Positions 5,585 through 47,526 of a DNA stretch of 64,000 bases are shown one piece after another. The stretch's first letter is position 1, and every line of letters begins with the position of its first letter. The notes beneath the pieces were generated by a model. That model saw only the letters and a program-made list of their open reading frames with translations, was not told the origin of the DNA and ran no database searches. A program made the translations under genes and the position numbers. Origin of the DNA: Hydrogenovibrio marinus (GTDB taxonomy: Bacteria; Pseudomonadota; Gammaproteobacteria; Thiomicrospirales; Thiomicrospiraceae); contig NZ_AP020335.1 in NCBI RefSeq assembly GCF_013340845.1, forward strand, positions 434,001 through 498,000. Direction: 5' to 3'.

Positions 5585-5635
5585 AAAATCTACCAGGTTG
5601 GGTGTTGTCAACCAGCTCCCAACCTGGTAGATTTT
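5585..5635. repeat. inverted pair of the dispersed 20-bp repeat after ychF
   Basis: AAAATCTACCAGGTTGGG at 5585-5602 and its perfect complement at 5618-5635 flank a 15-nt loop, an 18-bp stem. The A/T tracts are on the outside, so the transcript hairpin ends in ATTTT, and it may terminate ychF transcription. Both arms are copies of the repeat seen at ten further sites in this window. Confidence 0.85.
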
Positions 5636-5678
5636 GCGTTTTTGTTAACAAAATATGAAGAAAAATCGCGCCAAGCAA

Positions 5679-5706
5679 TTGACAAGATTCATAAACAAAT
5701 TATAAT
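5679..5706 (+). promoter_or_regulatory. strong sigma-70 promoter of tRNA-Met
   Basis: TTGACA at 5679-5684 and TATAAT at 5701-5706 both match consensus exactly, with a 16-bp spacer. The tRNA begins 15 bp downstream. Confidence 0.8.
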
Positions 5707-5720
5707 ACGCAACTTCTTTA

Positions 5721-5797
5721 GGCTACATAGCTCAGCTGGTTAGAGCACATCACTCATAATGATGGGGTCCCAAGTTCGAATCTCGGTGTAGCCACCA
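5721..5797 (+). tRNA. tRNA-Met(CAU), elongator
   Basis: Acceptor arms GGCTACA and TGTAGCC pair, the discriminator is A and CCA is encoded. The anticodon arm CATCA-CTCATAA-TGATG gives CAU. The sequence closely resembles the Escherichia coli elongator tRNA-Met (GGCTACG start and the same anticodon arm), which separates it from the second CAU tRNA at 53524. Confidence 0.92.
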
Positions 5798-5803
5798 TAT
5801 TCC

Positions 5804-5830
5804 AAAAGCCGTCTTTACGACGGTTTTTTT
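5804..5830 (+). terminator. intrinsic terminator after tRNA-Met
   Basis: CCGTC (5809-5813) pairs with GACGG (5819-5823) around loop TTTAC. The stem is extended by A/T pairs and followed by seven T residues. Confidence 0.85.
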
Positions 5831-6136
5831 ATGTCTGAAATTTGTTGTGAACTTCGTCACCCAGTCAGTAATTCACTTTTAGTGTGCGGCTTGTTTTGTG
5901 TGAAATCAAGGGTTCAGGTGGTAAAGAAATCGGCATCAAGGCCGATATTTAAAATAAATAATAATGCGTATAAAATGGTAAAATGCGCTACTTTAACAGC
6001 CTGCAATTCGAGCCACAGCCGTTTGTCGATGGGCTTACTCATTTGCTAGAAATAAAATAGACATTTTCAGCGCTTACGATTAAATTAGTAGATACGCGCA
6101 CATTATTGTCAGTCAGTACTATTCGAGGATGAAGGA
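5831..6136. other. intergenic region before the diguanylate cyclase gene
   Basis: About 306 bp lie between the tRNA-Met terminator and the next gene. No credible coding sequence or repeat is seen. A weak AT-rich promoter-like stretch around 5950-5990 (TAAAAT) could serve the downstream gene. Confidence 0.4.
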
Positions 6137-7990
6137 TTGATCTTAAATTGGAATGCATATACTCGGCGTCTTGTGCTGTCTGCAGTTATCATTGTGTTGA
6201 CTGCGGTGTTCTTCCTGAATGCCTTTTTCCATTCGCAAATCACCCAAGCAGAAAAGAATGAACTTAATCAGTATGAAGGGTATTTGCATGAAACTATCGG
6301 CAACCTTGTTCGTCAGAAACAAGCGACGACGCAGGTATTGGCAATCGCGCTTTCCAACTCTATTGATTTCCGTAATGTCCTTAAACAAAGACCCGCAAAT
6401 CTGCATGAAAGATTAAAGAAATTCACCGATGAGCTGGCGCTGCATACGGGATATAAATCTATCTGGATTCAGGTGATTGATACAAAAGGTGTGAGCATTG
6501 GTAGAAGCTGGACAACAGTGGCAGGCGATAGCCTTGCAATGGTGCGTAAAGATATTGCGGATGTTTTAAAGAATCCTAGAAAAATCAATAACTTCAGTGT
6601 CGGAAAGTTCTCATTGACCTTTAAATCTTTGGCGCCGATTTTTGATGAAAATGGCAAGCTCTTAGGGATATTGGACGTTATTTCACAAGTTGACTCTATT
6701 GATCGAGATTTGCAAACCAGTAGTGGTGTGAGTTCTGTGGTGCTAGTCGATAAACGTTATCGCTCACAGTTGACTAAAGCGCGCACAGGCACATTCGTTG
6801 AGGGTTACTATGTGGCGAATGCAGGGGTTTCGAAATCTGTTTTGAATATGATTTCTCAGTATGGCGTGGACAAACTGTTTCATGCGAAGGGTCATATCAT
6901 TATTGATGGTACTTTGGTTATCACCACACCATTGAAAAATATCTTGGGTCAAAAGATTGGGGTTTGGTTGAGCTTCAAACCGATGAAAGTGGTTGACCTC
7001 TCTAATACACGTCAACTATATAAGAATTATGCAATGGGAATGGCGGCGACAATACTTTTCTTGATATTGTCCATGTTGTTGTTCTACTTCAAGAAAAAAT
7101 CGGATTTAGAACGCCGCTTCTTCTATCAGATCTTCGATGAATCTTCGGAAGTGATTTATGTCACTGATAAGCACCGCGTGGTGCAAGCCAACAGACAGTT
7201 CTTCTCATTGTTTGATGATATCTCGACTGTCGAGCAGTTTAATGACAAATTCGATTGCTTGAGTAACGTGTTGGTTGAAGAAGAAGGGTATTTGAGTCGT
7301 TATGTTGATGGCATGCTTTGGCATGAGTATTTGCTACAAGACCATCACAAAACCCTGTTGGCGAAACTGAAGACAAAAGATGGCATCAGAACCTTCAAGG
7401 TCAGGATCAATAGCATCAGTAACAGTTTTGGTCACGACTATATCAGTGTACTACTGACGGACATTACAGAAGAAATTCGATATAAAGAAGAGTTGGAACA
7501 CCTGATTATCCATGATGAGTTGACGGGTATTTACAATCGCCATTATTTCAACGAAACTTTGGAAGAAGAAATCAAGCGGGCGCACCGTTATCAAGTACCT
7601 TTTTCTCTGATTTCCTTTGATGTCGATTACTTCAAGAATGTGAATGACGACTTTGGTCACGACATCGGTGACACCGTCTTAAAAATATTGACGAAAGAAG
7701 TTGCTCGCAGTTTGAGAGATACCGATAAGTTCTGCCGAATTGGGGGCGAAGAGTTCTGTATCTTGATGCCTGAAACGGATTTGGAAGAAGCTGCCACCAC
7801 GGCAGAGCGTTTAAGAAAAGCTGTTCAGGAAATTCCTTATTCTGACGTTCCGCGTGCCGTGACGATCAGTTTGGGGGTAACCAAGCTCAATCGTTGGGAT
7901 AACGCTTCTACGCTCTACAAACGTGCTGATGTGGCGCTGTATCAAGCCAAAGACAAAGGTCGAAATCGCACCGAAGTGATTGCCAGTTAA
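6137..7990 (+). CDS. membrane sensor diguanylate cyclase (PAS-GGDEF)
   Basis: This 617-residue protein has an N-terminal membrane segment (about residues 12-30) and a periplasmic sensor of about 260 residues, probably CACHE-like. A second membrane segment (about 297-318), a PAS-like domain (about 330-450) and a C-terminal GGDEF domain follow. The catalytic motif is intact as RIGGEEF near residue 534, and the LIIHDELTGIYNRHYF entry segment precedes it. It should make cyclic di-GMP from GTP in response to an extracytoplasmic signal. The start shown is TTG with GAGGATGAAGG upstream; other starts are possible. PilZ and EAL proteins also occur in this window. Confidence 0.88.
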   Translation: MILNWNAYTRRLVLSAVIIVLTAVFFLNAFFHSQITQAEKNELNQYEGYLHETIGNLVRQKQATTQVLAIALSNSIDFRNVLKQRPANLHERLKKFTDELALHTGYKSIWIQVIDTKGVSIGRSWTTVAGDSLAMVRKDIADVLKNPRKINNFSVGKFSLTFKSLAPIFDENGKLLGILDVISQVDSIDRDLQTSSGVSSVVLVDKRYRSQLTKARTGTFVEGYYVANAGVSKSVLNMISQYGVDKLFHAKGHIIIDGTLVITTPLKNILGQKIGVWLSFKPMKVVDLSNTRQLYKNYAMGMAATILFLILSMLLFYFKKKSDLERRFFYQIFDESSEVIYVTDKHRVVQANRQFFSLFDDISTVEQFNDKFDCLSNVLVEEEGYLSRYVDGMLWHEYLLQDHHKTLLAKLKTKDGIRTFKVRINSISNSFGHDYISVLLTDITEEIRYKEELEHLIIHDELTGIYNRHYFNETLEEEIKRAHRYQVPFSLISFDVDYFKNVNDDFGHDIGDTVLKILTKEVARSLRDTDKFCRIGGEEFCILMPETDLEEAATTAERLRKAVQEIPYSDVPRAVTISLGVTKLNRWDNASTLYKRADVALYQAKDKGRNRTEVIAS

Positions 7991-8076
7991 GCCACTCGGT
8001 ATTCACCGTTCTGCAAAGCTATTCATTCCCGCTACAAATCTGTTAGCATACGCCTGTTTTTTGTGGAGAAAAGTCT

Positions 8077-8463
8077 ATGGGTATCTTGCCGCACCATCTT
8101 TTATATTCCGACGCCCATCTCTGGTTGTTTGTCGATGCCGAAGGCTATGTCACATTGGGACTGACAGATTATGCTCAAGAGACTTTGGGAGATATTGTTG
8201 AAGTCTTCTTGCCGCAAGAGGGGGAAGAGCTGGCCGAAGGCTCGGAGTTGATGTCGCTTGCAGGCGAAAGAAACCATTTTGAGATTTTCGCCCCCATCAG
8301 TGGTGAGGTAATTGAAGTAAATGAAGAGCTCAACCACAACCCGACCCTAATTAACTATGAACCCTACGACAGTGGTTGGTTGGTAAAGATTGCGCCTGCC
8401 GATAGCGAAGAGCTGGAAGTGTTTTTAACTGACGAAGAATACGAACAGTTAATCGGTTACTAA
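8077..8463 (+). CDS. GcvH-like protein lacking the lipoyl lysine
   Basis: The 128-residue protein has the fold signature of glycine-cleavage H protein: HLWLFVDAEGYVTLGLTDYAQETLGDI at the start, APISGEVIEVNEEL in the middle and the EPYDSGWLVKI end. In H protein the lipoylated lysine lies eight residues before the proline of the P-x-SG motif. Here that position is arginine, in GERNHFEIFAPISG, and no lysine is nearby. It therefore cannot be lipoylated in the normal way and is unlikely to serve glycine cleavage. No gcvT or gcvP is adjacent. The GGAG ribosome binding site supports the ATG. Its function is unknown. Confidence 0.8.
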   Translation: MGILPHHLLYSDAHLWLFVDAEGYVTLGLTDYAQETLGDIVEVFLPQEGEELAEGSELMSLAGERNHFEIFAPISGEVIEVNEELNHNPTLINYEPYDSGWLVKIAPADSEELEVFLTDEEYEQLIGY

Positions 8464-8528
8464 GCGTTAGCGGCTGCTGTTAAACCGTGCTTTGCATGGC
8501 ATGATGAAATAAATACACAGGATTAATT

Positions 8529-9743
8529 ATGACTACCGAAACGCCAAACTTGGCAATGACACTGAGGCTGAAGAAAAACGAAGACCGTCGCCTTAAACAA
8601 GGCCATATGTGGATTTACAGTAATGAAGTCGATACTCAAGTATCGCCGTTGAAGAGCTTTGAGTCCGGACAAGTAGTGACAGTGGAGTCCTCTAATGGCA
8701 AGCCGTTAGGCATCGCCTACATCAATCCGAATACACTTATCTGCGGACGTTTGTTGAGCAGAAACCCAAAGGTAGAGTTTAATCAGGCATTCCTTAAAAA
8801 ACGCATCCAAGCGGCATTAGCATTACGTGAGCTGAATTTTGATGCGCCCTATTATCGTTTGGTATTCGGTGAGTCTGATGGCTTGCCGGGGTTGGTGATT
8901 GACCGTTTTGGCGATGTATTTGTGGCGCAAATCACGACAGCAGGTATGGAGAAGATGAAAGCGGAAATCACGCAGACCATCGAAAACCTGTTTCATCCTA
9001 TCGCGTTGGTCTATCGTAACGATACTGCCAGTAGAGCGCTTGAGGGCTTGGAGTCTTACGAAGAAGTTGCGATTGGCACGTTGCCAGAAAGCATTGTCAT
9101 TGAAGAGAATGGCGCCAAATTTCAGATTCCGGTGGAGAGTGGACAAAAGACTGGCTGGTTTTATGATCACCGCATGGCAAGAAAGCGCATGCAATCTTTG
9201 GTGCAAGGCAAGCGTGTATTGGATGTCTTTAGTTACCTTGGCGGCTGGGCGATGGAAGCCGCGGTTGCGGGTGCCGCAGAAGTGGTTTGTGTTGATGCCT
9301 CATCTGCCGCTTTGGATGGTGTGGAAATTAATGCGGAGCTGAACGGTGTGGCCGACAAGTTGACGACCTATGAAGGCAATGCTTTCGATGTATTGAAAGT
9401 CTTGGTTGGTGAAGCGCAAAAATTTGATGTGGTGATTGTCGATCCACCAGCGTTCGTCAAGCGCAGAAAGGATTTGAAGTCCGGGTCAGAAGGTTATCGT
9501 CGTATTAACGAATTGGCAATGCGTTTGGTGGAAAACGATGGCGTATTGATTTCGGCTTCCTGTTCGCATCACATGTCGCGTGACGACCTTTTGCAACAAG
9601 TGCAATCGGCGGCAAAACATATTGACCGCACGATACAAATGTTCGACCAGGGACATCAAGGTCCGGATCACCCGGTGCATCCTGCGATTGCAGAAACAGA
9701 ATACCTCAAATCATTCTTTTTCAAAGTCAGCAAAACTTGGTAA
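8529..9743 (+). CDS. rlmI: 23S rRNA cytosine methyltransferase, RlmI family
   Basis: This is a 404-residue class I SAM-dependent methyltransferase. An N-terminal PUA-like domain (RLKQGHMWIYSNEVD near residue 20) precedes an EEHEE region and a Rossmann domain. The SAM loop VLDVFSYLGGWAMEAA sits near residue 230, the active-site motif VDPPAF near residue 303, and the cysteine-containing SASCSHHMS near residue 340. These match the RlmI family, which forms m5C in 23S rRNA. An AGGA ribosome binding site precedes the ATG. Confidence 0.88.
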   Translation: MTTETPNLAMTLRLKKNEDRRLKQGHMWIYSNEVDTQVSPLKSFESGQVVTVESSNGKPLGIAYINPNTLICGRLLSRNPKVEFNQAFLKKRIQAALALRELNFDAPYYRLVFGESDGLPGLVIDRFGDVFVAQITTAGMEKMKAEITQTIENLFHPIALVYRNDTASRALEGLESYEEVAIGTLPESIVIEENGAKFQIPVESGQKTGWFYDHRMARKRMQSLVQGKRVLDVFSYLGGWAMEAAVAGAAEVVCVDASSAALDGVEINAELNGVADKLTTYEGNAFDVLKVLVGEAQKFDVVIVDPPAFVKRRKDLKSGSEGYRRINELAMRLVENDGVLISASCSHHMSRDDLLQQVQSAAKHIDRTIQMFDQGHQGPDHPVHPAIAETEYLKSFFFKVSKTW

Positions 9744-9789
9744 AGTAATAGAACGACTATAGCGCGTAAGGCAGGTACGGAGCCAAATC

Positions 9790-10974: not shown

Positions 10975-11026
10975 AAAAATCTGCCAGGTCGGGGTATTTG
11001 TCTACACCCCCAACCTGGCATTTTTT
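10975..11026. repeat. inverted pair of the dispersed repeat between convergent genes
   Basis: The left arm AAAAATCTGCCAGGTCGGGG (10975-10994) and the right arm CCCCCAACCTGGCATTTTTT (11007-11026) form a long hairpin with one mismatch in the GTC/GTT position. T-runs follow the stem on both strands, so it has the form of a bidirectional terminator for the 9790 gene and lysA. The right arm touches the lysA stop codon. Confidence 0.85.
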
Positions 11027-13330: not shown

Positions 13331-13351
13331 CCCCCAACCTGGCAGATTTTT
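13331..13351 (-). repeat. single copy of the dispersed repeat
   Basis: CCCCCAACCTGGCAGATTTT begins 18 bp after the esterase stop, in minus orientation relative to the consensus. No complementary arm is present nearby, so this copy does not form the hairpin seen after ychF. Confidence 0.85.
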
Positions 13352-21984: not shown

Positions 21985-22314
21985 AAGCGTCTAAGAGCTT
22001 CCTTGTTAGGTACAAAAATCGGATGTTTAAAAATATAGCTTTTAGTCATACTGTCTTCAATATTGCCTGAATAACATTACTTTTTGTAGTGTTTTTTTGC
22101 TTAGATCACCATAAAACTTTTTTGGGGCGGATGAACTTAACTTATTGAATTTCATTAAAGTTCTAAAAAAACGGTCGATAAAAAGTTAAACAGAATAATA
22201 AATGCCGCTCACACGGACGTTCAAGCGCTCAATAGGATGTGTTGTTCTGACGGTCGATAATTCGATTTGTTTATGAACGAGTAGCGCTTAAGGCTAAAAG
22301 TGAGGTGTAGACCA
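21985..22314. other. divergent intergenic region with a repeated ACGGTCGATAA
   Basis: About 330 bp separate the chemoreceptor from the plus-strand gene at 22315. An 11-bp direct repeat, ACGGTCGATAA, occurs at 22171-22181 and 22250-22260. The first copy has TAAAGTTC 10 nt before GTCGATAA, which resembles a flagellar sigma-28 promoter (TAAA, N15, GCCGATAA) but is one base short in spacing. No other feature is seen. Confidence 0.4.
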
Positions 22315-23322
22315 GTGTCAAATTCAATCATGCCATCAAGTGAAAGTGTTTCAGATTTGCTCGGCCAAAGTGGTCGTGCTGCTACGGTTTTGTCAGAATT
22401 ATTGAAGAACCGTCAGGATCATGAAGACGCCAACAACAAAAATAAGTCCGGTTTTCCGGTTTCGTCGTTATTGGATAGCTTTTCGCCTTCCAAGGCATTG
22501 CAACAGGCATCTTATGCTTCCAGCGCACAGACGCAGTATGCCTATAGCAATACCATGACCTTGAATCTCACCACGAAAGAAGGTGACCAAGTCAGTGTCG
22601 ACTTCCGCCAGCTTTATGCCGAGTACAAATCCTATCAAACACAGCAAAGTGTCAAGTCAGGACCAAGCGGCGCCCGTTATTTTGAAAGCACACAAGCAAT
22701 GGAATCCACAGCCTTTGAAGAACGTTTCGGTTTTTCGGTAAAAGGTGATTTAAATGACAATGAAATGAAAGCGATTTTTGATGTCTTTCAACAGGTGGAT
22801 AATTTGGCAAATCACTTCTTTAAGGGCGACATTGAGAAAGCCTTCAAAAAAGCGGTGGATTTGAATGTTGATTTCGGTCAGTTGCAAAGTGTGAGTGTTA
22901 ATTTACAGCAAACACAAACCTATGCGGCGAGTTACCAACAGGCAGCAGCCTATCAGCAACAAGGTAGCAGTGATGTTGCCAGTGCGAATGGCGCTACCCC
23001 TGGTTCTTCTGTTGTAGCATTGCCAGCGTATTTGCAAAAAATGCAAAACGTGGTCGATACCTTGAGTCAGCAGTTTGACAATGCCCGTCAGATTGCTGAA
23101 AAAATGCTTGCTGATGTGGTCGCATCACGTTTCCCTGAAGAAGGAACGCAGTCGATTATTTTGCAAAGACTTCAAGATTTGCATGATGCACTTATCAACA
23201 GAGTACCGTTGAGTGAAACGACATTGAAACCCAGCGGTATTGTGATCAATCCTAATAAGGAAACGGCTACGGATGCCGTGAATACAACGCCTGCTACCAA
23301 TCAGGATGTTTCTGTCGCCTGA
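22315..23322 (+). CDS. unknown soluble Gln/Ser-rich protein
   Basis: The predicted protein has about 335 residues and no signal peptide. The N-terminal 90 residues are low complexity (S, Q, N). A folded-looking middle follows (MTLNLTTKEGDQVSVDFRQL near 80 and FGFSVKGDLNDNEMKAIFDV near 140), then a Q/A-rich linker and a helical end. I chose the GTG at 22315 because GAGGTG lies 7 nt upstream; an in-frame GTG at 22300 is the alternative. The family is not recognised. The possible sigma-28-like site upstream hints at a flagellar link, which is weak. Confidence 0.6.
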   Translation: MSNSIMPSSESVSDLLGQSGRAATVLSELLKNRQDHEDANNKNKSGFPVSSLLDSFSPSKALQQASYASSAQTQYAYSNTMTLNLTTKEGDQVSVDFRQLYAEYKSYQTQQSVKSGPSGARYFESTQAMESTAFEERFGFSVKGDLNDNEMKAIFDVFQQVDNLANHFFKGDIEKAFKKAVDLNVDFGQLQSVSVNLQQTQTYAASYQQAAAYQQQGSSDVASANGATPGSSVVALPAYLQKMQNVVDTLSQQFDNARQIAEKMLADVVASRFPEEGTQSIILQRLQDLHDALINRVPLSETTLKPSGIVINPNKETATDAVNTTPATNQDVSVA

Positions 23323-23346: not shown

Positions 23347-23369
23347 TCAAAAACTGCCAGGTTGGGGGG
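23347..23369 (+). repeat. single copy of the dispersed repeat
   Basis: The core CTGCCAGGTTGGGGGG, preceded by an A-run, lies 25 bp after the preceding stop codon. Relative to consensus the AAAATCTG part reads AAAAACTG. No complementary arm follows. Confidence 0.75.
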
Positions 23370-23488: not shown

Positions 23489-25114
23489 ATGAGAACGATG
23501 CAGGATGCATTTGTCATTTTTTCGGTTGTTTTTACGCTCTTAATCACAGTGTTAGGGTTTTTCTGGTACCAAGTCTGGTGGACATTCGCTGTTTGGCTAC
23601 CACTATTATTGCTTGGTGTGCATGACATCTTGCAAACCCAACATACCATTCTCAGACTCTACCCTGTTTTAGGTCATATTCGTTATCTATTTGAATCCAT
23701 TCGTCCTGAAATTCAGCAATATTTCGTTGAAGATGATACCAATGGTAAGCCCATTAGCCGTGAATTCCGTTCCTTGGTCTATCAGCGTGCAAAAGGGGAA
23801 AGAGATACTATCCCGTTTGGAACGCAGTTTGATGTAACCCGTGTCGGATATGAATGGACGAATCACTCGCTTTTTCCCGTTGAAGCCATGGTGGAAGATC
23901 CAAGAGTGGTTCTTGGCGAAGGACGCTGCCGTTATCCTTACTGTTCTGCTCTGATTAATATTTCTGCGATGAGTTATGGCGCATTGAGTCAAAATGCGAT
24001 TCGCGCACTGAACCTAGGTGCCAAGCTAGGTAACTTTGCACACAATACCGGTGAAGGCGGGCTGAGTCCTTATCATCTCGTGAATGGTGGAGACTTGGTT
24101 ATGCAGATCGGCACCGGATATTTCGGTTATCGCACACATGATGGCCAATTCGACCACCATAAATTCACTCAAGCGGCAAAATTAGAACAGGTCAGAATGA
24201 TTGAAATTAAGTTGTCTCAAGGTGCCAAACCTGGTCATGGCGGCCTGTTGCCCGGCGCAAAGGTGACGGAAGAAATTGCCGAGATAAGAGGAGTGGAAGT
24301 CGGAAAAGATGTGGTTTCTCCACCGATGCACAGTGCATTTGATTCGCCTATCGGGTTGTTGAAGTTTATAGAGGAATTACGAGAAATATCGGGAAAACCC
24401 GTTGGCTTTAAATTGGCGGTGGGGCGTACCGAGGAGTTTCTTGCACTTTGTAAGGCAATGCTGGTGACCAAAATTGTGCCGGACTTTATTACCGTAGATG
24501 GCGGTGAAGGTGGTACGGGAGCAGCTCCTATTGAGTTCTCTAACTCAATGGGCACACCGTTAAAAGAAGCGTTGTATATTGTGCATAACGGTTTGGTGGG
24601 CTGTGGCTTGCGAGATCAGATTCGTATTATCGCTTCCGGTAAGATATTGTCTGCTTTTCATTTGTTTCGTGCGTTGGCGCTGGGAGCGGATACTGTAAAC
24701 TCCGCGAGGGGGATGATGTTCGCACTCGGCTGTGTTCAGTCATTACATTGCAATACAGATAAATGTCCAACGGGGGTCGCCACTCAAAATCCTAGACGTT
24801 CTAAAGCGCTCGATGTGCCAAGTAAGGCACAACGGGTTGCTAATTATCAGGGTTCTGTTATTCACCATTTCAAGCAAATGTTAGCAGCGGCGGGTTTGAG
24901 GTCAACAACAGAAATCAGTGCGAGTGATATTTATCGACGAGTCAGTGAAACACAAGTAAAGACTTTGGCGGAAATTTATCCGGTCATGCCTGCTGGCGCG
25001 TTGTTGGACGTCGACACCATTCCAGAGGATTGGCAAGGGTTTTGGGATAAGGCCAATCCGCATTTCTGGTCAGACTATCACAGCCAAGTCGTTGCAGAAG
25101 AAATGACGGGTTAA
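23489..25114 (+). CDS. FMN-binding glutamate synthase-family protein
   Basis: This 541-residue protein has two N-terminal membrane segments (about residues 7-50) and then a GltB2-type FMN/[Fe-S] barrel. The signatures include NISAMSYGALSQNA near 155, HNTGEGGLSPYH near 180, QGAKPGHGGLLPG near 242, and DGGEGGTGAAP near 333. The cysteines in CVQSLHCNTDKCPTGVATQ near 415 fit a 3Fe-4S site. It lacks the glutaminase domain of true glutamate synthase, and the physiological reaction of this stand-alone membrane family is uncertain. Confidence 0.85.
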   Translation: MRTMQDAFVIFSVVFTLLITVLGFFWYQVWWTFAVWLPLLLLGVHDILQTQHTILRLYPVLGHIRYLFESIRPEIQQYFVEDDTNGKPISREFRSLVYQRAKGERDTIPFGTQFDVTRVGYEWTNHSLFPVEAMVEDPRVVLGEGRCRYPYCSALINISAMSYGALSQNAIRALNLGAKLGNFAHNTGEGGLSPYHLVNGGDLVMQIGTGYFGYRTHDGQFDHHKFTQAAKLEQVRMIEIKLSQGAKPGHGGLLPGAKVTEEIAEIRGVEVGKDVVSPPMHSAFDSPIGLLKFIEELREISGKPVGFKLAVGRTEEFLALCKAMLVTKIVPDFITVDGGEGGTGAAPIEFSNSMGTPLKEALYIVHNGLVGCGLRDQIRIIASGKILSAFHLFRALALGADTVNSARGMMFALGCVQSLHCNTDKCPTGVATQNPRRSKALDVPSKAQRVANYQGSVIHHFKQMLAAAGLRSTTEISASDIYRRVSETQVKTLAEIYPVMPAGALLDVDTIPEDWQGFWDKANPHFWSDYHSQVVAEEMTG

Positions 25115-27227: not shown

Positions 27228-27845
27228 TCAAGAATTCGTTATGGATTCGTTAAGGATTCTGAAGTCGATAACCCGCCAGCGCTCTTGCCATGAAGTTGTC
27301 GATTGCCATTCCGATAATGCCGTATCAATTTTGCCTTCAAAACACCCGGGTAACCCCTTTTCAGAACACAGTCGGTTGGGAATTTTCCAGTCCTCCAACA
27401 ATGGACAAGCGCCAATCGCTTCTGGCGGGAAATCTTCAAATAAAAACTTGGCGGGTTTAACTGTGAATGGAAAGTTTTCAGACGCTTCTAACAACGCAAC
27501 AAACTTATTGTCTGGTGCAGCGCTTTGTGCAAAGTGCAACAGGTTCGCTATGTTAAGGTCGGATGCGAGTAAAAGGGTTGGACCTTGCGTCGGCTCCGGC
27601 GCCAAGCATTCCTGAAAAATCTGCCAGGTTGGGGTATCGACATTGGAGCGAATGGAATCGGTATTTTCAATATCAATATTGGATGTGGACAAGAATTGTG
27701 CTTCACTTCCTTGTTGGCGAAAAAGCGCTAAATCACTGCCATCGATGTTGAGTTGAAACCCGAAGGGAAGCGGTGTTGCATCATCCAATTCGACGCTGGT
27801 GAGCCACCAGCCACCAGCTTGTTCGGTTTGGTTGAGAAAACGCAT
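27228..27845 (-). CDS. unknown protein, faintly ferredoxin-reductase-like
   Basis: The predicted protein has 205 residues. The middle (LLLASDLNIANLLHFAQSA near residue 92) and end (CSEKGLPGCFEGKIDTAL near 158) are spaced like the nucleotide-binding loop and CGP motif of ferredoxin-NADP reductase or PyrK proteins, but the glycines are lost. It may therefore be a degenerate relative; this is a weak call. It lies 41 bp downstream of pyrC'. One copy of the dispersed repeat lies inside it, encoding PTWQIF at about residues 72-77. Confidence 0.5.
   Translation of the reverse strand: MRFLNQTEQAGGWWLTSVELDDATPLPFGFQLNIDGSDLALFRQQGSEAQFLSTSNIDIENTDSIRSNVDTPTWQIFQECLAPEPTQGPTLLLASDLNIANLLHFAQSAAPDNKFVALLEASENFPFTVKPAKFLFEDFPPEAIGACPLLEDWKIPNRLCSEKGLPGCFEGKIDTALSEWQSTTSWQERWRVIDFRILNESITNS
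27615..27634 (+). repeat. dispersed repeat inside the 27228 gene
   Basis: AAAAATCTGCCAGGTTGGGG is a full match to consensus, lying in a coding sequence on the opposite strand. It is read there as T-P-T-W-Q-I-F, a different frame from the copy in nnrED. Confidence 0.9.
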
Positions 27846-30221: not shown

Positions 30222-30241
30222 AAAAATCTGCCAGGTTGGGG
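30222..30241 (+). repeat. single copy of the dispersed repeat between ruvX and pyrB
   Basis: AAAAATCTGCCAGGTTGGGG lies in the 73-bp gap between ruvX and pyrB, upstream of the pyrB ribosome binding site. Read on the minus strand it is CCCC to TTTT. No partner arm is visible. Confidence 0.9.
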
Positions 30242-36389: not shown

Positions 36390-36409
36390 AAAAATCTACC
36401 AGGTTGGGG
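36390..36409 (+). repeat. single copy of the dispersed repeat between metK and metF
   Basis: AAAAATCTACCAGGTTGGGG (R position = A) lies 12 bp upstream of the metF start codon in the transcript. It occupies the place where the metF ribosome binding site should lie. Confidence 0.9.
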
Positions 36410-36456: not shown

Positions 36457-37614
36457 TTATAGGCCAGCATCGGCTCTTAGTGCTTCGGCCTTATCGGTTT
36501 TTTCCCAAGTAAATTCAGGAAGCTCACGACCAAAGTGACCGTAGCTAGCAGTTTTTTGATAGATCGGACGATAAAGATCCAACATGGAAATTAATCCTTT
36601 TGGTCTTAAGTCGAAGTGTTCGCGCACCAATTTCTCAATCAGTGAAACGGCAACTTTTTCAGTCCCAAATGTTTCGATGCTGATAGAAGTCGGCTCTGCA
36701 ACACCAATCGCATAGGAAACCTGGATTTCACATTTATCAGCAAGACCAGCAGCAACAATGTTTTTAGCGACATAGCGGCCAGCATAAGCAGCAGAACGGT
36801 CAACTTTTGATGGATCTTTCCCTGAGAAAGCACCACCACCGTGACGCGCCATCCCGCCGTAAGTATCAACGATGATTTTACGACCTGTCAAACCAGCGTC
36901 ACCAACCGGCCCGCCGATAACGAAACGTCCAGTTGGGTTGATGTGGTACTGCGTGCCTGAATGTAGCCATTCTGCTGGCAATACCGGCTTGATGATCTCT
37001 TCCATTACCGCTTCGTGCAAGTCTTTGTTTGCGATGTCTGGGCTGTGTTGGGTTGATAATACAACCGCATCAATAGCAACTGGTTGACCGTTTTCATAAC
37101 GTAAAGTGACTTGGCTTTTTGCATCTGGACGCAACCAGCTCAATACACCGTTCTTTCTCAGTTCCGCCTGTTTTTCCATCATGCGATGCGCGTAGAAGAT
37201 TGGTGCAGGCATCAATACATCGGTTTCGTTTGATGCGTAACCGAACATTAAACCTTGGTCGCCAGCGCCTTGCTCATGCTCGGCAGACTCATTGACACCC
37301 ATTGCAATTTCTGGGGATTGTTTACCGATCGAGCTCAATACGGCACAAGTTGAACCATCGAAACCAAGATCACCGTGGTTGTAACCGATGTCATTGACGA
37401 CTCTACGAACCAATTCTTCTTGGTCAACCCAAGCTTCCGTAGTGATCTCGCCACCGATCAGTACCATACCGGTTTTAACGAAAGTTTCACAAGCAACGCG
37501 TGCGCGTGGATCTTGCTTCAAGATAGCATCCAGCATGGCATCGGAAATCTGGTCGGCGATTTTGTCTGGATGCCCTTCGGAAACGGATTCGGAAGTAAAT
37601 ACTGTTGTTGTCAT
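36457..37614 (-). CDS. metK: S-adenosylmethionine synthetase
   Basis: This enzyme makes SAM from methionine and ATP. It has about 385 residues from the ATG at 37614, chosen because the protein then begins [18 protein letters not shown] as in the family. GAGG lies at the right distance, and an in-frame TTG at 37629 is rejected. [12 protein letters not shown] is near residue 118 and [19 protein letters not shown] near 258. A SAM-II/SAM-V-like riboswitch lies in its leader, which would give feedback control by the product. Confidence 0.97.
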
Positions 37615-37684
37615 GATAAAGGTCCTCATTCTATGGATTCAAAAAGTGAGGTACGGAAATCAAGGCGGAAGGAATAAATAGAGG

Positions 37685-41741: not shown

Positions 41742-43208
41742 TTAAAGTCCGGCGATAATGTCGGACGGAATCAAACTCGTTAGATTACGCGTCTCCACTA
41801 CCTGATCTGCTATGGCAGCATGCCGATAGGCACCGAGACAAGCAGCCGCCATCAATGACAAACCTTGTCTTGAACCTTGTGCCAGGTAGCTGGTAATCAT
41901 TCCCGTCAACACATCTCCCATACCACCAACCGCCATGCCTGGATTGCCTAATGGGCAAAGTTCCAAATGCTCTCCGTCAAAAATCAATGTGCCATTACCT
42001 TTCAGTAGAATGACGCCGCCATACAGCTCGTGGAGTTCGTAAATGGCGCTGATGCGGTCATTTTGTATCTCTTGTGGGGTACATCCTAGCATCTCGGCGG
42101 CTTCGCCAGGGTGTGGTGTCAAAACCCAATGAGGGTTTTGTGGAGATAACTTTGGATTTTGTGCCAACAGTTTCAGGGCATCTGCATCCAGTACAGCAGG
42201 CGTTTGATGGTGCTGCAGGTGATCAAGGGTTTTCAGTAAGAGATTTTGTGCCCATTCATCCAGCCCTAATCCCGGTCCAATGGCGATGGCATTGGCTAGT
42301 GGTAGCAGTTCATCCAGTTGTGTGGTTGGGTAGCACATCAGCTCCGGTTGCTGCTCAGTGAGCATGTTGGTGTGTTCATTTTGGGTAATGACCTTTACCA
42401 AGCCTGCTCCGGCTCTTAGCGCAGCGGTTGCAGATAGTTGGATAGCACCAGCCATTGAGTGATTGCCACCAATCAATAACGCTGTGCCAGAAGACCCTTT
42501 GTGTGCGGATGTCGCACGAACAGGTAAGCGTTCTTTCCAGTAAGCAAGATCATGAAAATCTGCCAGGTTGGGGGTGGTGTCAAACAATGCTTCCGGCAGT
42601 TTAAGGTCATCAATAATGATCTGACCGATATGGTCAGCACCCACACCGGTATAAAGTCCCATCTTGTGGGCAATGAAACTGATGGTGACATCTGCTTTAA
42701 TGGCGCAGCCATGAATGCTTCCGGTGGTCGCATCCACGCCGGTTGGGATGTCCAATGCCAAAACAGGCGCTTCGCTTTGATTCACTGCGTGGATGACATC
42801 CACTAGTTGTCCCGAGATAGGTTTATTGATACCAATACCCAGTAGTGCATCGACAATCACGTCTGTGTTGAGAACCTCTTTAGAAAAATCAACAGGAGTC
42901 ACGCCAAGCTGAATCAGTTCCTCGTAAACTTGTCGTGCATCTGGTTTGAAATTCTGGGGGTTGCCGATGATAACCACCGTAACATCCAAGCCTGTAAGCA
43001 AGGCATATTGTGCCAGTGCGAGTCCATCACCGCCATTGTTACCGGTGCCGCAGAGTAGCGTGACTTTATTTGCTTTCGGCCAGTGGTTTTGAAGCGTGAG
43101 AAAGGCGCCGAAAGCGGCGCGTTTCATCAGGAGTAGCCCGGGAATGTTCCAGGATTCAATCGCCGTGCGATCAAGTTGCTGGCACTGTTCGGCACTGAAA
43201 AGCTTCAT
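41742..43208 (-). CDS. nnrDE: bifunctional NAD(P)HX epimerase / dehydratase
   Basis: This 488-residue fused enzyme repairs hydrated NAD(P)H. The N-terminal epimerase (YjeF_N) has LCGTGNNGGDGLALAQYAL near residue 52 and ALDIPTGVDATTG near 148. The C-terminal ADP-dependent dehydratase has AIAIGPGLGL near 305, LTPHPGEAAEMLG near 365 and GGMGDVLTGMI near 427. One copy of the dispersed repeat encodes TPNLADF at the linker between the two domains, near residue 215. Confidence 0.95.
   Translation of the reverse strand: MKLFSAEQCQQLDRTAIESWNIPGLLLMKRAAFGAFLTLQNHWPKANKVTLLCGTGNNGGDGLALAQYALLTGLDVTVVIIGNPQNFKPDARQVYEELIQLGVTPVDFSKEVLNTDVIVDALLGIGINKPISGQLVDVIHAVNQSEAPVLALDIPTGVDATTGSIHGCAIKADVTISFIAHKMGLYTGVGADHIGQIIIDDLKLPEALFDTTPNLADFHDLAYWKERLPVRATSAHKGSSGTALLIGGNHSMAGAIQLSATAALRAGAGLVKVITQNEHTNMLTEQQPELMCYPTTQLDELLPLANAIAIGPGLGLDEWAQNLLLKTLDHLQHHQTPAVLDADALKLLAQNPKLSPQNPHWVLTPHPGEAAEMLGCTPQEIQNDRISAIYELHELYGGVILLKGNGTLIFDGEHLELCPLGNPGMAVGGMGDVLTGMITSYLAQGSRQGLSLMAAACLGAYRHAAIADQVVETRNLTSLIPSDIIAGL
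42555..42574 (+). repeat. dispersed repeat inside nnrDE
   Basis: AAAATCTGCCAGGTTGGGGG is a full match lying at the inter-domain linker of the gene on the opposite strand. It is read as T-P-N-L-A-D-F, another frame from the copy at 27615. That favours a DNA-level signal over a protein motif. Confidence 0.9.
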
Positions 43209-43237
43209 GGCGTACTCCTTGAAATGGTGTTTCTCTG

Positions 43238-44005: not shown

Positions 44006-44028
44006 ACCTTATCCTTTTAGCTTTTAAG

Positions 44029-45213
44029 TTAGAGTTGGTGCCTTAAATCTCGAAGTTGGAAGCCCATCAATGAGATATCCGTTTTTTTAGTGAGAGCGAT
44101 GACTTTGAAAGTCTCTCCCATTTCATCCGGTAATGTCAGGGTTTTAATCTGTTGGGCGATTTTCAACGATTTTGTAATGTCGTCCGTAGAAGTAGCGGAC
44201 AGTTCAAGCAAGCCACTACTCATCAAAAAATGCGCTTGGGTAGAGAAGCCTGCAATTTTAAAACCAACGTCAAATGCCGACTCTGCCACTGCCGTAAAAT
44301 CAACATGAGCGGTGATGTCCTGTAATCCTGGATAGAAAAATGGATTGCTGTGCGCCAAATGTTGGTAGTGGCAGCGCAGTGTTCCCATGACTCTGGCAGG
44401 TTGGTAATATTCCCGACGTGTATAACCATAGTCAATCAACAGCAATAGCCCTTTTTCCATTGCCTCAAAGACGGATTTCAACCAAGGGCGGATGTTGAGA
44501 TTGATTTCGGTCTCATAGCCATCCGGGCTTGGGTCGCCAATAAAATGCAAAATGCCATTACTGAAGCGTTGCAACAAGCGGTCGGTAATTGGTAGATAAT
44601 CCCACTCGAATTGCTGTTTAGCTTCGTTGAAAATCACCATTGCTTGTGAGGTTTGGTGGGGTTCAAGCTTCAGGCGCTCGACCGGCATGGCGTCCAATAC
44701 TTCGTTGGCAACAAATACCGCTTCTATCGGTGTTTCAGGTAGAGAATCCAGCCAAACCACCTTTTCAAACAGGTGAACCGGCAAAGCTTGCAGGGTTTCC
44801 TGTTGCACGAGTCTTAAATCAGCGCTCAGCTCAAGGATGTAGTAGTGCTCTAGAGGTTGTTCTTGTGCATCCAGTTCCAGCAAGATGTTTTTTGCCATGG
44901 TACCGCGACCAGCGCCAAATTCCACCAGGTTGGGGTGATCCAAAGTTTTCAGTACCTGTGCGGCTTGTCTGGCAATGCATTGCGAAAACAGCGGTGATAC
45001 TTCCGGTGCGGTGATGAAATCTCCCTGTGCGCCGATTTTTGGCAAGCTGTTGGCATAATAGCCGAGGCCGGGCGTGTAAAGTGCCATTTGCATGAATTGT
45101 GCGAAAGATAAACGACCTTGCCGGTTGAGTTGCTGTTTGATGCGTTGCGTGAGTTTTTCACTATGAAGCTGCGCATCGGTACTGGGCGTTGGGAGCGAAT
45201 GTTTTGGCTTCAT
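44029..45213 (-). CDS. MidA-like SAM-dependent methyltransferase
   Basis: This 394-residue protein belongs to the family of mitochondrial complex I assembly factor NDUFAF7/MidA. GDFITAPEVSPLFSQCIARQ near residue 64 and the SAM site NLVEFGAGRGTMAKNIL near 97 are typical, as is VFVANEVLDAMPVER near 170. The bacterial substrate is unknown. A stretch resembling the dispersed repeat falls on the SAM motif, probably by coincidence. Confidence 0.88.
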   Translation of the reverse strand: MKPKHSLPTPSTDAQLHSEKLTQRIKQQLNRQGRLSFAQFMQMALYTPGLGYYANSLPKIGAQGDFITAPEVSPLFSQCIARQAAQVLKTLDHPNLVEFGAGRGTMAKNILLELDAQEQPLEHYYILELSADLRLVQQETLQALPVHLFEKVVWLDSLPETPIEAVFVANEVLDAMPVERLKLEPHQTSQAMVIFNEAKQQFEWDYLPITDRLLQRFSNGILHFIGDPSPDGYETEINLNIRPWLKSVFEAMEKGLLLLIDYGYTRREYYQPARVMGTLRCHYQHLAHSNPFFYPGLQDITAHVDFTAVAESAFDVGFKIAGFSTQAHFLMSSGLLELSATSTDDITKSLKIAQQIKTLTLPDEMGETFKVIALTKKTDISLMGFQLRDLRHQL

Positions 45214-45412
45214 CGGTAAAATCTTTGTGCTTAGATGGTAAAAAAACAGAATTTTGGCTTATTATAGTGCCATATCGGCGTAAAAAGACGTTTTTTGGCA
45301 GTCAATTTGCTTTGAAATGTCGAGTAGGTTTCAGATGGCGTAAAGAGGTTGTATAGACTGATGTTCGCCAAAAAACAAGTAAACATGTGTTTTGGTGGTT
45401 AAGGGCATAGGC

Positions 45413-45877
45413 ATGAAATTAGGGATTAAAAAGCTTCATGAAAACGAATGGCAGGTGCATATTGGCAACGCCATGATTCGTATGGATTGTTTTTCGTTGG
45501 AGCTGTTGAATATCGCATTGGAGCATTTGCAGGCTTTGGAGTCGGGGCAGGAGCATTCCGTGTTGAAAAGCTATGTTCATTTGGCGGATCATTTAATGTT
45601 GTTGAGTCCGTCAGACTTGCAAACTTTGATGAGAGCGGTTGCTAACGAAGATGTGCTGATTTTATTGTTGACGGCAAATAACCCTGATTTGAACGAAAAG
45701 GTACTGTCAAACACGGGCGGTATCCTTGCCAAGCAATTACAAGCGGATTTAGAGAGAACGCCTATGCCGAATCATGAGGTTGCTAAAGCCGCTATCCGAA
45801 GAGTGATTGAGAAAATGTATGAGTTTGACGGTGATGGCGTTATTCAAGTTCAAGCCGGCGAAGAACGCTATATTTAA
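45413..45877 (+). CDS. stand-alone FliG C-domain-like protein (first of a pair)
   Basis: This 154-residue protein starts at the ATG at 45413, with AAGGG 7 nt upstream. The N-terminal 35 residues (EWQVHIGNAMIRMDCFSLEL) are beta-like and shared in style with the next gene. The rest resembles the FliG middle/C-terminal flagellar rotor fold: LSPSDLQTLMRAVANEDVLI, then LSNTGGILAKQLQADLE, then NHEVAKAAIRRVIEKM. These echo the FliG pattern of NMSxRA, a downstream L-x-E-D-L and the xxDVxxAQ segment. No flagellar genes are adjacent. The function is unknown. Confidence 0.6.
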   Translation: MKLGIKKLHENEWQVHIGNAMIRMDCFSLELLNIALEHLQALESGQEHSVLKSYVHLADHLMLLSPSDLQTLMRAVANEDVLILLLTANNPDLNEKVLSNTGGILAKQLQADLERTPMPNHEVAKAAIRRVIEKMYEFDGDGVIQVQAGEERYI

Positions 45878-45911
45878 CCGTATGGTGCCTTAGGGATTTA
45901 GAGGAAAGATC

Positions 45912-46364
45912 GTGGAGATTTCAGCAAAAAGAACGGAAACGGGTGAATATCTGTTGGAGATCGGATATGTCACGATTGAGCTGCCGCAAGAAGCGGTTTC
46001 CGGGTTGCAACAAATTATCAGCAAGCGCTTAGGGCAAGGTTCAGATATCGATCAGCAAGCCCTGCAGAAAAAACTGAAGGTCTATCGTGACTTGGCGAAC
46101 AAGTTGGTTTCTACCGATGACCGTATTATCCAGCAGGTGGCGCTGCAAATGTCACCTGAACAGTTGGTGACAGTGGCAAGGCTTGCAGAAGGGGAACGTT
46201 TGTTCCATAAGATCATGCGTAACATGTCTCGTCAAAACGGCAAACAGTTTCAAGAAGACTATCAAGCGTTGACGAAAATCACCGAGCAACAGGCTTGCGT
46301 CAATATGGAAAAGGTCGTGCCACTCATTCGTAAGGCGGCACAAGAACAGAAGTCGGTGACTTAA
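45912..46364 (+). CDS. stand-alone FliG C-domain-like protein (second of a pair)
   Basis: This is a 150-residue protein from a GTG with GAGGAAAG upstream. The N-terminus EYLLEIGYVTIELPQEAVSG mirrors the previous protein. LVSTDDRIIQQVALQMSPEQ is followed by FHKIMRNMSRQNGKQFQED, which recalls the NMSxRA...ED segment of FliG. A short helical end (TEQQACVNMEKVVPLIRKAA) completes it. The two genes are 34 bp apart and probably form an operon of diverged paralogues. Its stop overlaps the convergent folB end by 4 bp. Confidence 0.6.
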   Translation: MEISAKRTETGEYLLEIGYVTIELPQEAVSGLQQIISKRLGQGSDIDQQALQKKLKVYRDLANKLVSTDDRIIQQVALQMSPEQLVTVARLAEGERLFHKIMRNMSRQNGKQFQEDYQALTKITEQQACVNMEKVVPLIRKAAQEQKSVT

Positions 46365-46729
46365 GACGAGGTTCTTTGTCTATAAATGCTTAGGCCAACC
46401 GACTGAGCTGCAGGCACAGCGTCCGGTTTGTGTAGTGTGAGTTTTACCGCGGAAACTGCAGACTGGCTTTTTAATATGTGCTCACAAACTTGCTCGGCAA
46501 GCGATTCAATCAAATCAAATCTCGATTCTTCCGTTAGAGCTATTACCCCGTCACTGACCGTCTTATAACAGACCGTGTCTTGCAGGTCATCCGACAAACT
46601 TGCTTTCTTCAAGTCTGTGTAAAGTTCAATATCAAACACTAAAGGTTGCTTGATTTCTTTTTCCCAATCGAAAACTCCGATAACCGCATCAACGGCAAGG
46701 CCTTTAATAAAGATAGTGTCATGATGCAT
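46361..46729 (-). CDS. folB: dihydroneopterin aldolase
   Basis: This tunnelling-fold enzyme of folate synthesis has about 122 residues from the ATG at 46729, preferred over a TTG at 46744. Motifs are IFIKGLAVDAVIGVFDWEKE at the start, DTVCYKTVSDGV near 55, LIESLAEQVCEHIL near 73 and TLHKPDAV near 98. It is divergent from plsY, the common arrangement folB/plsY/tsaD. Confidence 0.94.
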   Translation of the reverse strand: MHHDTIFIKGLAVDAVIGVFDWEKEIKQPLVFDIELYTDLKKASLSDDLQDTVCYKTVSDGVIALTEESRFDLIESLAEQVCEHILKSQSAVSAVKLTLHKPDAVPAAQSVGLSIYRQRTSS

Positions 46730-46848
46730 GTTGCCGACTCTCAATATTGGTTGTTTGTAAGATGTAACATAAGTGCCGATAATTATAACGCTAACAATTG
46801 CTTTATAAACCGATTAAAATGTTCGCCAAACTAATTATGGACAGCATT

Positions 46849-47436
46849 ATGAATGAGTTATCACTTTTAAATATCGCGATTTTGGCCGGCGCTTACCTGA
46901 TTGGTTCGCTGTCATCGGCGATTATTGTTTGTCGATTGATGGGGTTGGAAGATCCTCGAAAGAGCGGTTCCGGTAATCCGGGGGCAACCAACGTCAAGCG
47001 TCTTTATGGCACCAAGCCTGCTGCCATTACGCTAGCGGGCGATTTGTTGAAAGGTCTGATTCCTGTTGCTGTGGTAAACATGATGGGTATGCCGCCGGCA
47101 TTGGTGGTGACCGTTGGGTTTGCCGCATTTATCGGTCATCTTTATCCGGTGTTTTTTGGTTTTAAAGGTGGAAAAGGCGTGGCGACCATGTTGGGCGTGA
47201 TGTTCGGTTTGTCACCATTGATTGGTCTAGCCGTTGCTGGAACTTGGCTGTTTGTCGCCAAGGTATTGAAGATTTCTTCTATTTCGGCGTTGGTGGCAAC
47301 GCTATTGGCGCCACTTTATATTCACTTTATTTCTGGTGAGCCATCGTGGGTAGCTGTCACCATGATTATGACTTTAATTCTCTATTGGCGTCACCGTGCC
47401 AATATCATGCGATTGGTTCGCGGCGAAGAAAAGTAA
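46849..47436 (+). CDS. plsY: acyl-phosphate:glycerol-3-phosphate acyltransferase
   Basis: This 195-residue inner-membrane enzyme starts phospholipid synthesis. The three PlsY motifs are visible: LIGSLSSAIIVCR near residue 16, GSGNPGATNVKRLYGTK near 41, and GHLYPVFFGFKGGKGVATMLG near 98. I chose the ATG at 46849 by alignment with the family start; upstream in-frame starts lack support. Confidence 0.95.
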   Translation: MNELSLLNIAILAGAYLIGSLSSAIIVCRLMGLEDPRKSGSGNPGATNVKRLYGTKPAAITLAGDLLKGLIPVAVVNMMGMPPALVVTVGFAAFIGHLYPVFFGFKGGKGVATMLGVMFGLSPLIGLAVAGTWLFVAKVLKISSISALVATLLAPLYIHFISGEPSWVAVTMIMTLILYWRHRANIMRLVRGEEK

Positions 47437-47446
47437 TATTTGCCGT

Positions 47447-47526
47447 CCCCCAACCTGGTAGATTTTCTCACCTTACCCCTTCGGGCGGCGAGTGCTTTGT
47501 TTGATGAAAATCTGCCAGGTTGGGGG
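47447..47526. repeat. inverted pair of the dispersed repeat between plsY and tsaD
   Basis: A minus-oriented copy (CCCCCAACCTGGTAGATTTT, 47447-47466) and a plus-oriented copy (AAAATCTGCCAGGTTGGGGG, 47507-47526) are separated by 40 bp. The G/C ends face outward and the A/T tracts face the loop, the opposite of the pairs at 5585 and 10975. The stem would be 20 bp with one wobble. It lies between the ends of convergent genes but lacks the terminal T-run of an ordinary terminator. Confidence 0.85.

What the first reader, a model, noticed from the sequence alone, without database searches (positions are those of the whole stretch)
5585..47526. Dispersed 20-bp repeat AAAATCTRCCAGGTTGGGG, twelve copies in 48 kb
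Clear copies lie at 5585, 5618, 10975, 11007, 13331, 23347, 27615, 30222, 36390, 42555, 47447 and 47507, in both orientations, with R = A or G the main variation. They occur as inverted pairs at gene ends, as single intergenic copies and within genes. This mix of pairs, singles and genic copies is what DNA uptake sequences of Neisseria and Pasteurellaceae show. An uptake or host-recognition signal is therefore a testable idea for this lineage. Alternatives are a mobile palindromic element or a protein-binding site.
Basis: partly seen in the sequence, partly recalled or inferred. Interest (0 to 1): 0.85.

Follow-up and report, generated by a model that had tools for sequence, protein, structure and literature searches.

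The report
Third family of DNA-uptake-like repeats
A short DNA word scattered hundreds of times through the genome of the marine bacterium Hydrogenovibrio, and respelled in a concerted way in its relatives, looks like a self-recognition tag for taking up DNA of one's own kind, which would make a third bacterial group with such tags.

Summary
The repeat is real and genome-wide. The window holds 13 copies (0.07 expected). Its genome, Hydrogenovibrio marinus MH-110 by exact length match, holds 371 copies with up to 2 mismatches, balanced between strands; the reversed control has none.

It is one dialect of a family-wide system. In 33 of 62 genomes of the order (one GTDB family here) I found an abundant copy set of one of five related words: CCAGGTTGGG, CCAGGCTGGG, CCAGGGGTGG, the palindrome CCAGGCCTGG, or ACAGGCCGGG. 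In sampled stretches each genome uses essentially one word. All 13 window sites have a copy in the same spacer or gene of a congener about 25% diverged, but in that congener's own word; 10 of 10 base-aligned copies show the same T-to-C change. Conservation in palindromic congeners is partial.

In H. marinus, copies avoid divergent promoter spacers, gather at gene 3' ends, sometimes form terminator-like hairpins, and also lie in genes. ComEC, PilT and PilU are present.

Best explanation: a DNA uptake sequence system separate from those of Neisseriaceae and Pasteurellaceae. Uptake and receptor are not shown. A HIP1-like methylation signal or another DNA-binding protein remain rivals. Searches of a partial, open-licence library found no report of it.

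The parts
5585..5603 (+). repeat copy, 1 mismatch, first arm of an inverted pair behind the ORF at 4442-5533
   Evidence: orthologous copies in G012 and, in its own dialect with one mismatch, G007
5617..5635 (-). repeat copy, 1 mismatch, second arm of the pair 5585/5617; hairpin z -8.5
10976..10994 (+). repeat copy, 1 mismatch, first arm of a pair between convergent ORFs
   Evidence: (spacers of G005 and G009 lack a copy)
11008..11026 (-). repeat copy, 2 mismatches, second arm of the pair 10976/11008; hairpin z -4.2
13332..13350 (-). exact single copy between tandem ORFs
   Evidence: spacer holds CCAGGCCTGG in G005 and G009
23349..23367 (+). single copy, 1 mismatch, between ORFs 22300-23322 and 23489-25114
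27616..27634 (+). exact single copy inside ORF 27228-27845 (no Pfam match, may not be a gene)
   Evidence: same interval holds CCAGGCCTGG in G005 and G009
30223..30241 (+). exact single copy between tandem ORFs; no hairpin of its own (z 0.3)
   Evidence: (33 extra bases beside the copy in G007); spacer short and empty in G005, G009, G011
36391..36409 (+). exact single copy behind the ORF at 36457-37629 (S-adenosylmethionine synthetase by recall)
   Evidence: G007 copy on the other strand with one mismatch; exact palindrome in G011, one mismatch in G005, none in G009
42555..42573 (+). exact copy inside ORF 41742-43208
   Evidence: aligned without gaps in G012 and G007
   Evidence: aligned without gaps in G012 and G007
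47448..47466 (-). exact copy, first arm of a pair between convergent ORFs
47507..47525 (+). exact copy, second arm of the pair 47448/47507; hairpin z -5.7

Best explanation
The repeat is the Hydrogenovibrio marinus dialect of a DNA uptake sequence system of the Hydrogenovibrio/Thiomicrorhabdus/Thiomicrospira family. A surface receptor of the DNA uptake pilus, not identified here, would prefer double-stranded DNA with AAAATCTRCCAGGTTGGGG; PilT/PilU-driven retraction and ComEC would bring such DNA in; recombination of imported fragments would spread and keep the word wherever it is tolerated (3' spacers, permissive codons). When the receptor's preference shifts, the sites are respelled as a set, giving species dialects. 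Some pairs would be co-opted as transcription terminators. Shown here: copy number, dialects, respelling at orthologous sites, context, hairpin-forming pairs, presence of ComEC, PilT and PilU. Inferred: recognition by an uptake receptor, biased uptake, molecular drive, termination.
For: 371 copies against 0 for the reversed control, 173/198 by strand. Five words sharing CAGG, essentially one per genome. In G012 13 of 13 and in G007 13 of 13 window sites have a copy of that species' own word in the orthologous interval (G007: 10 exact, 3 with one mismatch); 10 of 10 base-aligned G007 copies have C where H. marinus has T. Six short G007 spacers hold 6 exact copies against 0.2 expected. Convergent spacers 19 of 41 (10.7% of spacer length), divergent 2 of 41 (26.6%). 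Pairs fold strongly. ComEC in 56 of 62 genomes, 31 of the 33 dialect carriers; PilT/PilU in H. marinus. The same combination marks uptake sequences of Neisseriaceae (PMC3630211, abstract and passages).
Against: No uptake data. No receptor: ComP_DUS over cut-off in 0 of 62 genomes, no GspH/FimT domain hit in H. marinus. ComEC also occurs in most genomes without a dialect, so it does not track the repeat. Only three prepilin hits in H. marinus; PilQ, ComEA, DprA and ComM were not searched. Density (about 1 per 6.7 kb) is far below the thousands of copies of Neisseria. In palindromic congeners several orthologous spacers are empty, which also fits turnover or loss. The commonest word is a palindrome, unlike known uptake sequences.
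Confidence: 0.72

Rival explanations
1. HIP-like signal: the words are created or kept through a DNA methyltransferase and methylation-dependent repair, as proposed for the cyanobacterial palindrome HIP1 and its alternates, with no tie to DNA uptake.
For: In 27 of 62 genomes the word is a GC-rich palindrome. Cyanobacterial HIPs are also replaced by other words in some lineages, each with a matching methyltransferase (PMC4390886, abstract and passages). Many copies are genic in palindromic species.
Against: H. marinus, G007, G013 and G022 use asymmetric words of about 18-19 bases with an A-tract, longer than usual methyltransferase sites. Density is about 50-410 per Mb against 1000-2000 per Mb for HIP. 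Depletion in divergent spacers and 3'-end bias in H. marinus. Methyltransferases were not searched.
Confidence: 0.12
2. Binding sites of an intracellular DNA-binding protein (nucleoid organiser, segregation or regulatory factor) whose specificity has shifted between species, respelling its sites.
For: Hundreds of sites, in-place respelling and an at least partly two-fold symmetric form would suit a dimeric protein.
Against: Divergent spacers are depleted (2 of 41), against a promoter-bound regulator. Strands are balanced (173/198), against a polar signal such as Chi or KOPS. Even spread round the chromosome was not tested in full, since only the first 100 places were listed.
Confidence: 0.1
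3. Terminator building block: the word is only the arm of a common intrinsic terminator hairpin.
For: 3'-end bias; the three window pairs fold strongly; intergenic palindromes often have complementary flanks, for example 9 of 11 in G005.
Against: Of 70 copies in 464 kb only 9 adjacent pairs lie within 60 bp; a single copy tested has no hairpin (z 0.3); copies inside genes exist, 21 of 22 in four sampled g6 genomes. It does not explain a fixed primary sequence or the dialects.
Confidence: 0.04
4. Small mobile element (REP/MITE type) spread by transposition.
For: Many near-identical dispersed copies and inverted pairs; small indels lie beside some sites, such as 33 extra bases beside 30223 in G007; the spacer at 30223 is shorter and empty in G005, G009 and G011.
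Against: Sequence information stops at the 19-mer. No site is empty in G012 or G007, yet the whole set is respelled. Copies in ORFs at 42555 and 44917 align without gaps.
Confidence: 0.02

Closest known systems
DNA uptake sequence (DUS) of Neisseriaceae, with eight dialects and the minor pilin receptor ComP
   Same: Genome-wide over-representation, dialects with a conserved inner core, inverted pairs associated with terminators, intergenic and genic copies (PMC3630211, abstract and passages).
   Different: Unrelated bacterial family and word; about 18-19 bases in H. marinus instead of 10-12; hundreds instead of thousands of copies; a palindromic dialect; no ComP-type protein over cut-off; uptake not tested.
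Uptake signal sequence (USS) of Pasteurellaceae, AAGTGCGGT and ACAAGCGGT types; receptor predicted as PpdA/ComN
   Same: Short core with A/T-rich extension, several dialects, copies in genes and spacers (PMC12616744 and PMC1939737, passages).
   Different: Different word and core (CAGG against GCGG); lower density; a palindromic dialect, whereas USS is not palindromic.
HIP1 and alternate highly iterated palindromes of cyanobacteria
   Same: Over-represented GC-rich palindrome, replaced by other words in some lineages (PMC4390886, abstract and passages).
   Different: Asymmetric long dialects with A-tract, lower density, 3'-end bias in H. marinus; methylation not tested.

Membership tests
DNA uptake sequence systems (DUS/USS as a functional class) | Short word strongly over-represented genome-wide | tested here: met
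   371 against 0 for the reversed control in H. marinus; 100 or more palindromes in 27 of 62 genomes, control 0-2 per strand
DNA uptake sequence systems (DUS/USS as a functional class) | Dialects with a conserved inner core in related species | tested here: met
   Five words sharing CAGG; single off-dialect copies in 6 of 22 sampled carriers
DNA uptake sequence systems (DUS/USS as a functional class) | Inverted pairs acting as or resembling terminators | tested here: met
   9 adjacent pairs among 70 copies; three window pairs fold better than all shuffles; termination itself not tested
DNA uptake sequence systems (DUS/USS as a functional class) | No strand polarity | tested here: met
   173 plus, 198 minus
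DNA uptake sequence systems (DUS/USS as a functional class) | Competence machinery: ComEC and retractable type IV pilus | tested here: inconclusive
   ComEC, PilT and PilU met; few prepilins; PilQ, ComEA, DprA not searched
DNA uptake sequence systems (DUS/USS as a functional class) | DNA carrying the word is taken up or transforms preferentially | not testable with these tools
   needs an experiment
Neisseriaceae DUS | ComP-type minor pilin receptor | tested here: not met
   PF16732 over cut-off in 0 of 62 genomes; 4 of 62 with weak matches at E up to 0.1
Neisseriaceae DUS | GCCGTCTGAA-type word | tested here: not met
   top words are CCAGG-type
HIP1-type palindromes | Over-represented word is a palindrome | tested here: inconclusive
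   met for CCAGGCCTGG in 27 of 62 genomes, not met for H. marinus, G007, G012, G013, G022, G036
HIP1-type palindromes | Cognate DNA methyltransferase | not tested
   no search made
REP/MITE mobile elements | Insertion with empty orthologous sites and homology beyond the short word | tested here: not met
   no empty site in G012 or G007, homology ends at the 19-mer; shorter empty spacer at 30223 in three more distant congeners

The most novel reading that the evidence does not exclude
A third, independently evolved DNA uptake sequence system, in free-living marine chemolithoautotrophs. Its commonest form is a two-fold symmetric palindrome (A-tract, CCAGGCCTGG, T-tract in Hydrogenovibrio) read by a symmetric or dimeric receptor, and it has been turned into asymmetric dialects at least twice (within Hydrogenovibrio, and in G022/G036 of genus g5), with hundreds of sites respelled in place. 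That the palindrome is ancestral is inference; no tree was built.
Probability: 0.5. Interest if true: 0.93.

Novelty: new variant of a known kind. Interest (0 to 1): 0.86.

Why it matters
The papers seen here (abstracts or passages) name uptake sequences only in Neisseriaceae and Pasteurellaceae. A third family with five dialects, four of them in one genus, and relatives without any, would let the origin, switching and loss of self-recognition in DNA uptake be studied in harmless marine autotrophs. Respelling at orthologous sites gives a direct record of how a receptor and hundreds of sites change together. It would also offer a handle for transforming Hydrogenovibrio.

Tried and rejected
Without result: PF12019 (GspH/FimT) in the own genome, no hit. 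PF16732 (ComP_DUS) in 62 genomes, none over cut-off, 4 weak matches. A further word in G028, G030, G042 and G051 (60-120 kb each): none of comparable excess except a longer repeat in G030. The order-level search returned the same 62 genomes, so occurrence outside the order was not tested. The viral collection gave 16 contigs with one exact 16-mer each; in the larger part the A-tract is missing; L281, L283 and L289 keep it. The receptor was not found: the shared prepilin with GFTLVEIAIVLVIIGLLLGGVLKGQELI also occurs in G016, which lacks the repeat, and the larger prepilin sets of other genomes (type II secretion-like by recall) are missing in the H. marinus group, so neither tracks the repeat.

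Rejected: polar signal (173/198 strands); mobile element; promoter element; terminator only; copies confined to the window.

Limits: gene context rests on a longest-ORF rule, not on annotation; one of the ORFs counted as genic (27228-27845) has no Pfam match. About 504 kb of the own genome was analysed (464 kb). Some logos rest on 3-10 sites. Of the 10 window loci, G005 (9 testable) has an exact palindrome in 3 (13332, 27616, and 47448 in a 2 kb spacer); G009 (8 testable) in 3 (13332, 27616, and 44917 in the gene at another offset); G011 (5 testable) in 1 (36391). and asked for some contigs that were shorter than wanted or absent (G010 and G013). The 16.5 kb at the window's right end hold no copy, too few to test.
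Full report
Observation. AAAATCTRCCAGGTTGGGG occurs 13 times in the window with at most 3 mismatches, against 0.07 expected (none needs more than 2). The window is 434001-498000 of a 2,491,293 bp single-contig genome that holds 371 copies with at most 2 mismatches, 173 and 198 by strand, and 0 of the reversed control. The published complete genome of Hydrogenovibrio marinus MH-110 is 2,491,293 bp with 44.1% GC (PMC6797543, whole text). Congener G006 has the contig length of H. halophilus DSM 15072. I take the window to be H. marinus; this rests on length, GC and genus, not on comparison with the accession. The names Thiomicrorhabdus (g5) and Thiomicrospira (g6) are inferred and recall.

Dialects. 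With the 19-mer pattern, 3 of 11 genomes of the genus have hundreds of copies: H. marinus 371, G012 396, G007 317; none of the 64 G007 places listed is exact, and nearly all carry CCAGGCTGGG or a one-base variant. Sampled stretches of other congeners showed the palindrome CCAGGCCTGG instead. Over 62 genomes (the family, also the whole order here) it reaches 100 or more copies in 27: 7 of 11 Hydrogenovibrio, 10 of 32 in g5, 9 of 9 in g6, 1 of 1 in g7; reversed controls are 0-2 per strand. Five more g5 genomes have 15-44 copies. AACAGGCCGGGT has 482 copies in G022 and 275 in G036, at most 8 elsewhere. G013 has CCAGGGGTGG behind AAAAATCG: 19 copies in 136 kb; its genome-wide number was not counted. 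That makes 33 of 62 genomes with a dialect. In the 22 carriers sampled, one word dominates each: H. marinus 68 CCAGGTTGGG and 1 CCAGGCTGGG in 504 kb, G007 18 of its word only, G013 19 of its word only, G009 42 palindromes and 1 ACAGGCCGGG, G022 20 of its word only. Single off-dialect copies occur in 6 of 22 (G000, G012, G006, G008, G009, G031); reversed controls give 0-2. Nine further genomes showed none of the five words in 20-120 kb each.

Shape. Logos: AAAATCTGCCAGGTTGGGG (H. marinus, 68 sites), AAAATCTGCCAGGCTGGGt (G007, 18), aAAAcTcAACAGGCCGGGTa (G022, 20), and in palindromic Hydrogenovibrio an A-tract before and a T-tract after CCAGGCCTGG (G005, 22 sites; weaker in G009, 42; absent or unclear in the 3-15 sites of other genera). 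All words share CAGG. I read the asymmetric words as one half of the palindrome with an altered other half; that is inference.

Respelling. The window was aligned with colinear stretches of five congeners. In G012 (88% identical) 13 of 13 sites have an exact core in the same interval. In G007 (about 75%) 13 of 13 have a copy of the G007 word, 10 exact and 3 with one mismatch. Of 11 sites spanned by an alignment, 10 align base on base and all 10 have C where H. marinus has T; the eleventh (36391) has its copy on the other strand; 10976 and 23349 were not spanned. Six short G007 spacers (1,305 bp with margins) hold 6 exact copies against 0.2 expected; all ten intervals (9,190 bp) hold 10 against 1.4. 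Small indels lie beside some sites, for example 33 bases beside 30223 in G007. In palindromic species conservation is partial: 13332 and 27616 hold CCAGGCCTGG in both G005 and G009, 36391 in G011; the intervals at 10976 (G005, G009) and 30223 (G005, G009, G011) are empty, the last with a much shorter spacer. The copies inside ORFs at 42555 and 44917 align without gaps in G012 and G007.

Context. In 464 kb of H. marinus, 70 copies (at most 3 mismatches) split into 18 genic and 52 intergenic while ORFs cover 88%; 9 adjacent pairs lie within 60 bp. Of 41 spacers with copies (at most 2 mismatches), 19 are convergent (10.7% of spacer length, p 8e-9), 20 tandem (62.7%, p 0.08) and 2 divergent (26.6%, p 6e-4); in tandem spacers 17 of 21 copies lie nearer the upstream gene's end. 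The three window pairs fold strongly (z -8.5, -4.2, -5.7); the one single copy tested does not (z 0.3). Palindromic genomes have more genic copies: 28 of 42 in G009, 21 of 22 in four g6 genomes, but 11 of 22 in G005 and 3 of 10 in G011.

Machinery. ComEC (PF03772) is found in 56 of 62 genomes and 31 of the 33 carriers; the two misses, G035 and G036, are assemblies of about 330 and 520 contigs. The H. marinus protein has the full ComEC/Rec2 layout. PilT and PilU family proteins lie in L038 of H. marinus, over the cut-off. G012 has an extension ATPase with an MshE-type c-di-GMP domain (over cut-off) beside a GspF/PilC-like protein (below cut-offs). H. marinus has three prepilin hits, in one cluster. 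ComEC is also present in genomes without a dialect, so it is compatible with the idea but does not track it. No ComP-type protein was found. PilQ, ComEA, DprA and ComM were not searched.

Mechanism. The pattern is what receptor-driven uptake bias would leave: many sites in permissive places, kept by position among close relatives but respelled as a set. In Neisseriaceae, dialects limit exchange between species and inverted pairs associate with terminators (PMC3630211, abstract and passages). Bakkali (PMC1939737, passages) gives 65% and 35% genic copies for H. influenzae and N. gonorrhoeae, about 10% inverted repeats and no orientation bias; H. marinus has 26% genic (18 of 70). The main rival for the palindromic form is a methylation-based origin as proposed for HIP1 (PMC4390886, abstract and passages); methyltransferases were not searched.

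Literature. Searches joining uptake sequences, competence, natural transformation or repeats with Hydrogenovibrio, Thiomicrospira or Thiomicrorhabdus showed no report in the listings (some lists were cut at 10-25 papers), nor did searches for pieces of four of the five words (7 papers, unrelated by title) or for uptake sequences in other groups. The H. crunogenus comparison has no occurrence of uptake sequence, competence or type IV pil in its main text (PMC6501319, term counts and passages). The library holds only open-licence papers: the Thiomicrospira crunogena genome paper was not held, and the 2018 comparison of these genera was seen only as a reference. So novelty is likely but not proven.

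Verdict. Observation confirmed; uptake sequence system likely (0.72); function and receptor unproven.

Noticed in passing
window 58539-59778 and 60001-61240: An exact direct duplication of 1,240 bases, each copy with ORFs of 283 and 104 aa on the minus strand; resembles a two-ORF insertion sequence by recall. No repeat copy lies in the last 16.5 kb of the window.
   Followed up: partly
G000, G007, G012, G013 against other Hydrogenovibrio: The H. marinus group has 3 prepilin hits per genome, the other seven congeners 7-11; the missing ones look like a type II secretion pseudopilin set by recall.
   Followed up: no
L116:10652-14234 and L255-L259: A prepilin with the N-terminus GFTLVEIAIVLVIIGLLLGGVLKGQELI and a very variable remainder occurs in each of six genomes looked at, beside larger prepilin-like proteins in some.
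   Followed up: partly
L051/L052 (G005:C1:100001-140000): About 18 copies of several long exact words in 40 kb, so a local repeat array of unknown kind.
   Followed up: no
G030 samples L078, L087-L091: A repeat around CTGACTCGGATTC, 14 copies in 120 kb, unlike the dialects; kind unknown.
   Followed up: no
G023, G033, G041, G046, G047: Five g5 genomes have 15-44 palindromes, far fewer than carriers but above the control of 0; possible relics or recent gain.
   Followed up: no
G002: Small numbers of both CCAGGCCTGG (5) and AACAGGCCGGGT (8) on a few contigs of a fragmented assembly; contamination is possible.
   Followed up: no
L281, L289 (viral contigs of 35.6 and 39.0 kb): Each has one exact 16-mer with the A-tract; could serve to test depletion in prophages.
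   Followed up: partly
G011:C5:127302-128465: The S-adenosylmethionine synthetase match contains one in-frame TAA; sequencing error or real is unknown.
   Followed up: no
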